A stretch of 64,000 bases of DNA, from assembly GCA_947473475.1 (NCBI GenBank), contig CANJBZ010000019.1, positions 1 to 64,000 of the forward strand, written 5' to 3'. Of the stretch, positions 1 to 2,016 are shown in pieces. How positions within the stretch are numbered: the stretch's first letter is position 1; each line of letters starts with the position of its first letter. The DNA is from Alphaproteobacteria bacterium. GTDB lineage: Bacteria; Pseudomonadota; Alphaproteobacteria; Micropepsales; Micropepsaceae. The notes under the pieces are model-generated. The model searched no databases and was not told the origin of the DNA. It saw only the letters and a program-made list of their open reading frames with translations. The position numbers and the translations under genes were made by a program.

Positions 1-52
1 CATCCAAGCGGTCTTTAGAAACGTCAATTCCAACTACTACGGTGGTGTCCAT
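1..52 (-). CDS. IS110-family transposase, N-terminal fragment
   Basis: The reverse complement starts with ATG at 52 and reads MDTTVVVGIDVSKDRLD, the typical N-terminus of IS110-family transposases. The Asp in GIDVSK is the first acidic residue of the RuvC-like DEDD domain. Only 17 codons lie in the window. These enzymes recombine DNA with a bridge RNA encoded in the element's non-coding end and a C-terminal serine-containing domain, which cannot be seen here. No frameshift is visible in this part. Confidence 0.85.
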   Translation of the reverse strand, partial: MDTTVVVGIDVSKDRLD

Positions 53-229
53 TATCACCCCTCCGTGCGCAATCGGGCTTCGCGACTTGCGGCCCCCGCG
101 ACTGTTCGGGGTCAATGGAACGGCAGGCGGAGAGCCTTGCTCCCCACGGGCTCGAACCCTGGGGGGAATCGGTCTTCCGCCCGCCACCGCATCGGACAGC
201 TTATCCGATGACGACGATTTCAAGTTACA
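53..229 (-). ncRNA. Candidate IS110 bridge RNA region in the left end
   Basis: This non-coding stretch between the transposase start and the element edge is about 177 bases long. On the minus strand it folds into at least two clear hairpins. One has perfect 7-bp arms at 190-196 and 204-210. The other has 10-bp arms at 122-131 and 176-185, fully paired in RNA with one G-U pair, and encloses a smaller stem with arms 148-150 and 157-159. The known IS621 bridge RNA comes from the same position and carries target- and donor-binding loops. Assigning this region as a bridge RNA is inference from location, length and structure; the loops were not matched base by base to target and donor. Confidence 0.45.
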
Positions 230-394
230 AGGGGGACCGCCGCAGGCGGTGGAGGGGGCGGGGGACGCGCGCTGGCGTTAGCCTGTCGAGCATCAAACCA
301 AACCTTGTATCCCCCCGTCGCTCGCCGCCCCCTCCACCATGCTTCGCATGGTTCCCCTCCCCCGTTACGCGTTGCTTCACGGGGGAGGAGCCAC
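230..394. repeat. Family-A composite palindromic repeat, truncated copy
   Basis: Two GC-rich modules in opposite orientation flank a unique core. The left module (about 230-256) carries the ACCGCC..GGCGGT stem and the GGAGGGGG run. The right module (about 326-392) carries CCCTCCACCATGC, GCATGGTTCCCC and CGGGGGAGGAG. Compared with the copy at 22326-22554, the outer CCTCCCCC/GGGGGAGG hairpin of the left module is absent, replaced by the IS110 end. No gene is seen between 53 and 398. Confidence 0.75.
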
Positions 395-398
395 TGTT

Positions 399-1295
399 TT
401 AAAACGCCGGCTTGTCCGCCGTCGGGACCGGTTCGAGGCCGATGTTGAAATAGTCGTCATTGGCTTCGGAGCAGTCGGGCTCGGCGATACGGATATTGGG
501 ATTGACCACCTTGTGCCGGTTCCGGGTGCCGGACCAGGGTTTGTAGAAGGCGCCCGGATCGTCGACGGTGAAGGCGACCTCCAGCGTGTTGCCGCCATCG
601 ATCAAACGGAAACGCTCCACCACGTGCAGCTTGTCGGTATGCGGCGTGCGGTAGGAATCCACGAACGTCTTATCGTTGAAGCCGTTGGTATCGACGACGA
701 GCGTATCGCCTTCGTAATGGCCCACCGATTCTCCGTACCAGGACGGTTTTGGGTTTCTGGAATGGGGCACGTTCAGCCAGATATGGCGGGTGCGCCCGAC
801 CAGAAACAGCACGACTTCCTTCGGCGTCTGCACGATGCGCATGGCGCCGGGGTTGAGGTGAAACGCGGGAACGCCGGTTTCCCAGCAGCGGGCCTCGCGG
901 GTTTCGCCGTTACGTTCCTTCAGCGCCAGCTCGTTTTGCTTCTGAACAGCCTCGCGCGCCCAAGGCATCAGATTTTTGCCGGAGGCGTTGTCCAGGTCCG
1001 CCACGCGATAGGTCGGGGGCACGCGCATCTCGCGCGCGACCTCATTGTTCGCGTAAGGGTGGGCTGGTCCATCGCTCACCGGGCCGATGCCGTTTGGTGG
1101 ATTGGAATAATCGTTGAAGGTGCGCGCGACGGCGTAATCCGGCGCTTTCGGTGCGACGAAGCCCAGCCAGGCAACGCCGGGCGCGGACAGGTTCAGCCCC
1201 GGAGGCGCGCCTGTTGCAGGCGCATCGGCCGCCAAGGCCGGCAGGATGCAGGCGGCGGTCAGAGCGGTTGCGGCTAGAAGACTGGGCATTCTCAT
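399..1295 (-). CDS. Secreted protein of unknown function, WEGDTLVV-type paralog 2
   Basis: A 298-residue protein. The start at 1295 (MRMPSLLAATALTAACILPALAAD) is chosen because it gives a signal peptide and follows AGGAG about ten bases upstream; a longer frame to 1475 would overlap the upstream gene. The C-terminal half repeats the pattern of the neighbour at 1309-2016: GDTLVV, then T-GFND-T-D, PH-D-L, ER and a DP-Y/F-PW segment. It lies 13 bases behind that paralog, so the two are probably one minus-strand operon and an old tandem duplication. The protein is probably periplasmic. Its function is unknown. Confidence 0.8.
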   Translation of the reverse strand: MRMPSLLAATALTAACILPALAADAPATGAPPGLNLSAPGVAWLGFVAPKAPDYAVARTFNDYSNPPNGIGPVSDGPAHPYANNEVAREMRVPPTYRVADLDNASGKNLMPWAREAVQKQNELALKERNGETREARCWETGVPAFHLNPGAMRIVQTPKEVVLFLVGRTRHIWLNVPHSRNPKPSWYGESVGHYEGDTLVVDTNGFNDKTFVDSYRTPHTDKLHVVERFRLIDGGNTLEVAFTVDDPGAFYKPWSGTRNRHKVVNPNIRIAEPDCSEANDDYFNIGLEPVPTADKPAF

Positions 1296-1308
1296 AGCTT
1301 CAGCTCCT

Positions 1309-2016
1309 TCAGCGGCGCACGCCGGCGACGCCGGACAAATCGCGATGGGCATCGTTGCAGGCGTAATCTTCCAGACGCACATCGTTGCGCAGTTTGTAGA
1401 CAAAGCGCGCCTGCCAATCGCGCGCGTACAGCTGCGGATCGTGAATGGTGACAACGTCTTCGAGCTGATCGCCAAGGCGTTTGATTCGCTCTGTCGTCAT
1501 CATCTCATCGCTGTGGGGAAGGCCGGTGGCGTCCAGGAACGTGCGGTCGTTGAAGCCGATGCTTTGCACCACGAGCGTATCGCCTTCCCAGCGCGCCACC
1601 GAGTGACCGTTGTAGAGCGGCTCGGTGATGATGCTTTCGGGTGTGGGCAGAGGCTTGTCCATCGCAATCGTACGGGTCTGATGGTTCATCTCATAGACAA
1701 TGGTCACCTGACCGGCAGGGGCATGGAAAATCTCAAACGGATAGGGCGTGGCCAGTAGGCGCGGCACGCCGTCCGGTGTGCAAACGCGACGCGCCTTGTC
1801 GATGAGCGAGCCATCCTTCAGCCCTGCCGTGTTCTGCTGATAAAGCGCGCGACCCTTGTCGTTCAGCGGCGGCTCACCGCCCCCGACTACCGGGATTTTC
1901 GCGCTGTAGCTGGTGGCCCAATAGGTGCCCGAAAAATCGGGGGCGGCGTGCGTAGGAACCGCCGCTAAGGACAAGGCCGCGGTCAGCCCCAATGCACCGA
2001 TTGCGCCAAATTTCAT
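1309..2016 (-). CDS. Secreted protein of unknown function, WEGDTLVV-type paralog 1
   Basis: A 235-residue protein with a clear signal peptide (MKFGAIGALGLTAALSLAAVPTHA), then PDFSGTYW near the mature N-terminus. The C-terminal half holds VARWEGDTLVVQSIGFNDRT, PHSDEM and TTER, matching the downstream gene. GAGGGG precedes the start at 2016; an in-frame extension to 2091 has no better site. Proteins of this type are common as multiple copies in some soil alphaproteobacteria and acidobacteria and have no assigned activity. No catalytic motif was recognised. Confidence 0.8.
   Translation of the reverse strand: MKFGAIGALGLTAALSLAAVPTHAAPDFSGTYWATSYSAKIPVVGGGEPPLNDKGRALYQQNTAGLKDGSLIDKARRVCTPDGVPRLLATPYPFEIFHAPAGQVTIVYEMNHQTRTIAMDKPLPTPESIITEPLYNGHSVARWEGDTLVVQSIGFNDRTFLDATGLPHSDEMMTTERIKRLGDQLEDVVTIHDPQLYARDWQARFVYKLRNDVRLEDYACNDAHRDLSGVAGVRR

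What the first reader, a model, noticed from the sequence alone, without database searches (positions are those of the whole stretch)
1..260. IS110 element ends inside a palindromic repeat and carries a bridge-RNA-sized left end
The transposase begins at 52 and the family-A repeat resumes at 230-231, leaving about 177 non-coding bases with two strong hairpins on the transposase strand. The repeat is cut exactly there; read on the minus strand the shared bases stop after CCCCCT, which matches a CT core. IS110 elements are known to target REP-like repeats and to use a bridge RNA from this end, so this may be an active or recent RNA-guided insertion whose target is a host repeat family present several times in the chromosome.
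Basis: partly seen in the sequence, partly recalled or inferred. Interest (0 to 1): 0.72.

Follow-up and report, generated by a model that had tools for sequence, protein, structure and literature searches.

The report
RNA-guided IS110 in a palindromic repeat
A multi-copy jumping gene of the IS110 family carries its own guide RNA that fits a short palindrome repeated dozens of times in its host genome; this is a new member of a known kind, but studying its target exposed an apparently undescribed link between such palindromes and a small DNA-cutting enzyme, DUF559.

Summary
Window 1-229 is the left end of an IS110-group element on the minus strand: tnp start codon at 52, 177 nt non-coding (53-229), CT core at 230-231. 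The window begins at base 1 of a contig, so no left flank exists. The genome holds 5 left ends and 6 right ends of this element, all at contig ends. Every right end reads ACAGTCG-CT-CCCCC followed by the missing terminal palindrome. In about 54 relatives a covarying two-loop RNA is conserved, and its target loop covaries with each element's own insertion site (right guide 3.77 of 4 matched vs 1.78 shuffled; left guide 4.35 of 7 vs 3.00; 0 of 20,000 shuffles each). The window copy fits: RTG GGGGAG complements CTCCCC exactly, LDG is exact, LTG fits positions 3-8. The intact target motif occurs 61 times in the genome. So this is an IS621-like bridge-RNA element targeting REP-like palindromes. Beyond the finding: of 92 DUF559 (Vsr-like nuclease) loci from this genome and relatives, 77% lie between inverted repeats, mostly palindromes of this kind (control 0.2%). 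One DUF559 gene here is flanked by the same target motif; another borders an IS110 copy.

The parts
1..52 (-). 5' end of the IS110 transposase gene (ATG at 52); the rest is missing because the contig starts here
   Evidence: relative L025 has the full 309-codon gene with PF01548 and PF02371 and matches IS621 in the PDB at 4.8e-33
53..229 (-). non-coding left end, 177 nt, predicted bridge RNA
171..186 (-). 5' arm of the target-binding-loop stem (pairs with 121-136)
   Evidence: covariation, 12 of 15 pairs changed on both sides in relatives
121..136 (-). 3' arm of the target-binding-loop stem
161..169 (-). left target guide AUUCCCC-CC; fits GGTCCCC-C at positions 3-8
140..146 (-). right target guide UGGGGAG; GGGGAG is the exact complement of CTCCCC
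98..105 (-). left donor guide ACAGUCGC, identical to the element's right end up to the core C
64..72 (-). right donor guide UUGCGCACG; relatives have UUNNGCAAG, pairing discontiguously with CTTGTAA; changed base at 65
   Evidence: pattern as described for IS621 (PMC11208160)
222..227 (-). TAACTT, possible -10 of a promoter formed only when right end (TTGACC, 17-bp spacer) and left end are joined
   Evidence: inference from sequence; TTGAC kept in 45 of 50 relatives
230..231 (-). CT core, boundary between element and host repeat
232..261 (.). remaining inner part of the interrupted host palindromic repeat (left target side)
325..390 (.). intact inverted partner arm of the same repeat pair, with terminal hairpin 356-388

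Best explanation
This is the left end of one of at least six copies of an IS110-group insertion sequence. Its non-coding left end encodes a bridge RNA. One loop pairs with the host palindrome (GGTCCCC-CT-CCCC), the other with the element's own joined ends (ACAGTCG-CT-TGTAA). The DEDD/serine recombinase then exchanges strands at CT and inserts the circular form between the inner and the terminal hairpin of a REP-like repeat present in about 60 intact copies. Shown by sequence: ends, core, target, copy number, conserved RNA structure, and guide-target covariation across relatives. Inferred: expression of the RNA, the circular intermediate, a junction promoter, and the catalytic steps (from IS621).
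For: Five left ends and six right ends with one shared boundary each and different flanks. Donor junction shared by about 50 relatives. RNA structure with 13 pairs changed on both sides, 0/500 shuffles. Guide-target covariation: right guide 3.77 of 4 vs 1.78 shuffled (z 10.4), left guide 4.35 of 7 vs 3.00 (z 8.3), 0/20000 each. Own RTG exact and LDG exact. Relative's transposase matches IS621 and ISCro4 in the PDB and has PF01548 and PF02371 over cut-off. 61 intact target motifs, 0 reversed controls.
Against: No RNA or circle data. The transposase body of this genome's copies is not in the assembly, so its integrity is unknown. The window copy's LTG mismatches at positions 1-2 and at the second core base (both weak or free in relatives), and its RDG has one changed base. 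The boundaries in relatives were found with the donor motif, so conservation of that motif is partly by construction.
Confidence: 0.93

Rival explanations
1. Decaying copy: the window's copy is a relic that no longer guides its own movement and sits in a repeat that was once a target.
For: Changed base in the right donor guide (window 65) at a nearly invariant column, and a base at 111 that differs from copy C4. A related element in Microvirga in the same kind of repeat has lost its whole target loop (L064), so relics occur.
Against: The base at 111 has the same form in some relatives (L063, L097). All six right ends are identical, so the family spread recently.
Confidence: 0.3
2. The insertion site is chosen by the hairpin structure of the repeat or by a DNA-binding protein, not by an RNA guide.
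For: Right targets of relatives fold as hairpins more than local background (-11.7 vs -7.1 kcal/mol, p 2e-8).
Against: Guides covary with targets of unrelated sequence; some elements insert where no hairpin forms (e.g. L066, L088).
Confidence: 0.04
3. Assembly artefact: the contig end joins IS110 sequence to a repeat by mistake.
For: All junctions in this genome lie at contig ends and the element body is absent.
Against: Eleven junctions break at the same base with different flanks. Joined flanks rebuild the inverted partner arm for C4+C55 (score 26 vs 11) and for C35 with C7 or C34 (44-45 vs 27 or less). Relatives on long contigs show the same junctions.
Confidence: 0.02

Closest known systems
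IS621 (IS110 group, Escherichia coli) and its bridge RNA
   Same: Recombinase family (PDB 8wt6, 4.8e-33), non-coding RNA in a long left end, short right end, CT core, donor and target loops in the same order, LTG like the top strand and RTG complementary to it, nine-base discontiguous RDG, target in REP palindromes (PMC11208160).
   Different: Target sequence (GGTCCCC-CT-CCCC instead of ATCAGGC-CT-AC), host and repeat family; second core base in the guides is not conserved in this clade; no experiment.
REP-targeting IS elements ISPpu9, ISPpu10, ISPa11, ISRm19, ISRm22 (PMC1525189)
   Same: Specific insertion into host repetitive extragenic palindromes.
   Different: Other hosts and other repeats; ISPa11 belongs to the IS1111 group, with the non-coding region downstream of tnp (PMC11187229).
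REPtron / RAYT systems (PMC3733652), for the host repeat
   Same: A gene for a DNA-processing enzyme lies between palindromic repeats that also occur elsewhere in the genome.
   Different: Here the gene between the palindromes is DUF559 (Vsr-like), not a Y1 (HUH) transposase; this genome has no Y1_Tnp hit.

Membership tests
IS110-group insertion sequence with bridge RNA | DEDD (PF01548) and Transposase_20 (PF02371) recombinase | tested here: inconclusive
   Met in the full-length relative L025. In this genome only the first 17 and last about 40 residues of this element are assembled; the last 39 match L025 at 79%.
IS110-group insertion sequence with bridge RNA | long non-coding left end upstream of tnp, short right end | tested here: met
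   177 nt left, about 15 nt right of the stop codon.
IS110-group insertion sequence with bridge RNA | shared dinucleotide core at both junctions, no other target duplication | tested here: met
   CT at all five left and six right junctions.
IS110-group insertion sequence with bridge RNA | RNA with two internal loops conserved in structure | tested here: met
   (second loop's helices nearly invariant, so supported by conservation rather than covariation)
IS110-group insertion sequence with bridge RNA | target loop complementary to both strands of the target | tested here: met
   clade-wide covariation; own RTG exact, own LTG at positions 3-8
IS110-group insertion sequence with bridge RNA | donor loop complementary to the element's joined ends | tested here: met
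   LDG exact; RDG with one mismatch in this copy
IS110-group insertion sequence with bridge RNA | RNA expressed and bound by the recombinase; circular intermediate | not testable with these tools
   needs bench data
IS1111 group | non-coding region downstream of tnp (PMC11187229) | tested here: not met
   non-coding region is upstream of tnp
RAYT-linked REP family (for the host repeat) | Y1 (HUH) transposase gene linked to the repeats | tested here: not met
   PF01797: 0 hits in this genome while control genomes gave hits

The most novel reading that the evidence does not exclude
The palindromes hit by this IS110 clade are the inverted ends of units built around a DUF559 (Vsr-like) nuclease, which would be their dedicated partner as RAYT is for other REPs. 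The IS110 clade would then be a guide-RNA-programmed parasite of such palindromes, changing its target loop as it meets new palindrome families. The DUF559-palindrome association itself is well supported; that DUF559 moves or maintains the palindromes is a guess by analogy, and the IS110-DUF559 overlap outside this genome is weak.
Probability: 0.45. Interest if true: 0.78.

Novelty: new member of a known kind. Interest (0 to 1): 0.5.

Why it matters
It adds a clade of about 50 natural elements whose guides and targets change together, a ready-made test set for the rules of bridge-RNA targeting: the right guide is nearly always fully matched, the left guide tolerates mismatch at its first two positions, and the second core base is free. 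It also points to palindromic repeats that lack a RAYT but are linked to DUF559 genes; if that holds, it bears on the open question of how REPs without a known transposase arise and spread.

Tried and rejected
An exact search for the left end in genome contigs found nothing. Rfam has no match above its gathering score; the best is a chance-level mcrA hit. Pairing C19's left end with its right-end contig through synteny failed: the neighbouring gene belongs to a large paralogous family and its relatives' neighbours match none of the right-end contigs. Pairing through arm similarity worked for C4+C55 and narrowed C35 to C7 or C34, but not C19. A RAYT as source of the repeats was rejected. Hairpin structure alone as the guide was rejected because guides covary with unrelated target sequences. 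A first control for the DUF559 test (flanks swapped between loci) proved unsuitable because repeat families are shared between genomes; displaced positions in the same loci were used instead.

Full report
OBSERVATION. Window 1-52 (minus) starts an IS110 transposase, MDTTVVVGIDVSKDRLD, which runs off the window. The window is bases 1-64000 of contig C19, so the element is cut by the contig end and no left flank exists in this 66-contig assembly. Four further contig ends (C4, C51, C49, C35) carry the same left end; they share the sequence up to AAGTTACAAGGGGGAC and then run into different flanks. An exact 21-base search finds exactly these five. A full-length relative in another genome of the same family, L025, was used to find six right ends, again all at contig ends: C8, C55, C60, C26, C7 and C34. 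They are identical over at least 135 nt, then read CT-CCCCC and a palindrome, each in a different flank. So the genome holds at least six recent copies, and the missing repeat arm is present at every right end.

ELEMENT ANATOMY. In tnp orientation the layout is: left target GGTCCCC (AGTCCCC in C4), core CT, TGTAACTTG..., 177 nt non-coding, tnp, TGA, about 15 nt ending ACAGTCG, core CT, right target CCCCC. Of 80 relatives fetched, about 54 gave the left boundary and 50 gave both boundaries by the same motifs; because the boundaries were sought with these motifs, their conservation is partly by construction. TTGAC in the right end, a 17-bp spacer and TAACTT in the left end (45 of 50 relatives keep TTGAC at that place) would make a promoter only when the ends are joined. 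That is inference, in line with the natural promoter in the joined ends reported for IS621 (PMC11208160).

BRIDGE RNA. Alignment of 46 left ends and RNAalifold give a long hairpin with an internal loop, followed by a second loop. On the named structure, 96.4% of cells pair, 13 pairs have changes on both sides, and none of 500 shuffles reaches any of the five measures; sliding the partner by one to three bases destroys it. The covariation lies almost wholly in the first hairpin; the second loop's helices are nearly invariant. The first loop holds the target guides. Across 40 elements with distinct guides, the right guide matches its own right target at 3.77 of 4 non-core positions (1.78 when elements are swapped, z 10.4) and the left guide matches at 4.35 of 7 (3.00, z 8.3); no swap of 20,000 reached either value. 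Related elements can inflate z, but the set was made non-redundant by guide and the targets belong to several unrelated repeat families. The window copy has RTG GGGGAG, the exact complement of CTCCCC, and LTG AUUCCCC-C against target GGTCCCC-C: positions 3-8 match, positions 1-2 do not. Positions 1-2 are also weak in the whole clade (mean pairing scores 0.29 and 0.41). The second loop holds ACAGUCGC, identical to the right end up to the core C, and UUGCGCACG, which can pair discontiguously with CTTGTAA as in IS621. Nearly all relatives have CAAG where this copy has CACG, a change at window 65 in a stretch that the other copies' contigs do not reach.

TARGET. The intact motif GGTCCCCCTCCCC occurs 61 times in the 3.87-Mb genome and the reversed control 0 times. 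It lies between an inner hairpin (ACCATGCTTCGCATGGT type) and a terminal hairpin (CCTCCCCCGCTTCGCGGGGGAGG type). Ten places have two copies facing outward; nine are 120-165 bp apart, with spacers that look unrelated by eye where printed. The tenth, at C11, is 407 bp apart and encloses a DUF559 gene. The window shows such a pair: the arm at 232-261 is interrupted by the element, the arm at 325-390 is intact. In relatives the right target folds as a hairpin more than the local background (mean -11.7 vs -7.1 kcal/mol, p 2e-8), so the clade as a whole prefers palindromes of many sequence families.

DUF559 LINK (beyond the finding). The genome has no Y1/RAYT gene but four DUF559 genes. All four lie between inverted palindromes: C11 between target-type repeats; C50 and C25 between a CCCTCTCCCC family; C4 between repeats of a third kind, one of which carries an IS110 copy. 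Joining C4's left flank to each right-end contig identifies C55 as its partner and rebuilds the second arm (score 26 vs 11). In 92 DUF559 loci from this genome and relatives, 71 (77%) have inverted similar sequence on both sides within 200 nt at score 15 or more, against 1 of 659 displaced positions in the same loci. Repeat sequence follows protein similarity between genomes (Mantel r 0.25, 0 of 1000 permutations). The proteins resemble an endonuclease-like protein of known structure (3hrl). IS110 targets resemble DUF559 flanks more than control stretches (13 vs 0 of 41 at score 14 or more), but displaced IS110 flanks also gave 7 vs 1, so that comparison is weak. Of the 14 held papers that name DUF559 none has a title or abstract about such palindromes; one of them was searched and does not mention palindromes (it treats a Caulobacter DUF559 protein as a Vsr-like mismatch endonuclease), and a paper on palindromic repeats does not mention DUF559. 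Subscription papers are not covered. What DUF559 does to the repeats is unknown; mobilisation is a guess by analogy with RAYT.

VERDICT. The element is a new member of the IS110/bridge-RNA kind and should work like IS621. Its activity is not shown. The more unusual lead is the palindrome-DUF559 link met while studying the target.

Noticed in passing
own genome C11:77058-77339, C4:145-468, C50:12383-12700, C25:946-1260; L153-L241 in relatives: DUF559 (Vsr-like nuclease) genes lie between inverted palindromic repeats in 77% of 92 loci (score 15 or more; 1 of 659 displaced controls), and repeat type follows protein similarity.
   Followed up: yes
window 399-1475 (minus), with relatives across the genome: The gene next to the insertion belongs to a protein family without a Pfam match that has 54 matches in this genome at E 1e-30 or better.
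   Followed up: no
L064 (Microvirga MAG) 1330-1490: A related IS110 sits in the same kind of palindromic pair, but its left end lacks the whole target-binding loop (136 nt instead of about 180).
   Followed up: partly
L061, L065, L068, L070, L072, L074, L115, L117: A group of relatives has switched target loop and insertion site together to a CCTCATCCTGAGGAG palindrome family in other Alphaproteobacteria, a natural case of retargeting.
   Followed up: partly
own genome C26:17367-18278: A second, single-copy IS110 transposase (341-codon open frame, 41% identical to that of L025) is in the same genome.
   Followed up: no
L080, L082, L084, L087, L090, L094, L098: Some left junctions read CTTTGTAA instead of CTTGTAA, an extra T next to the core, within the same clade.
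   Followed up: no
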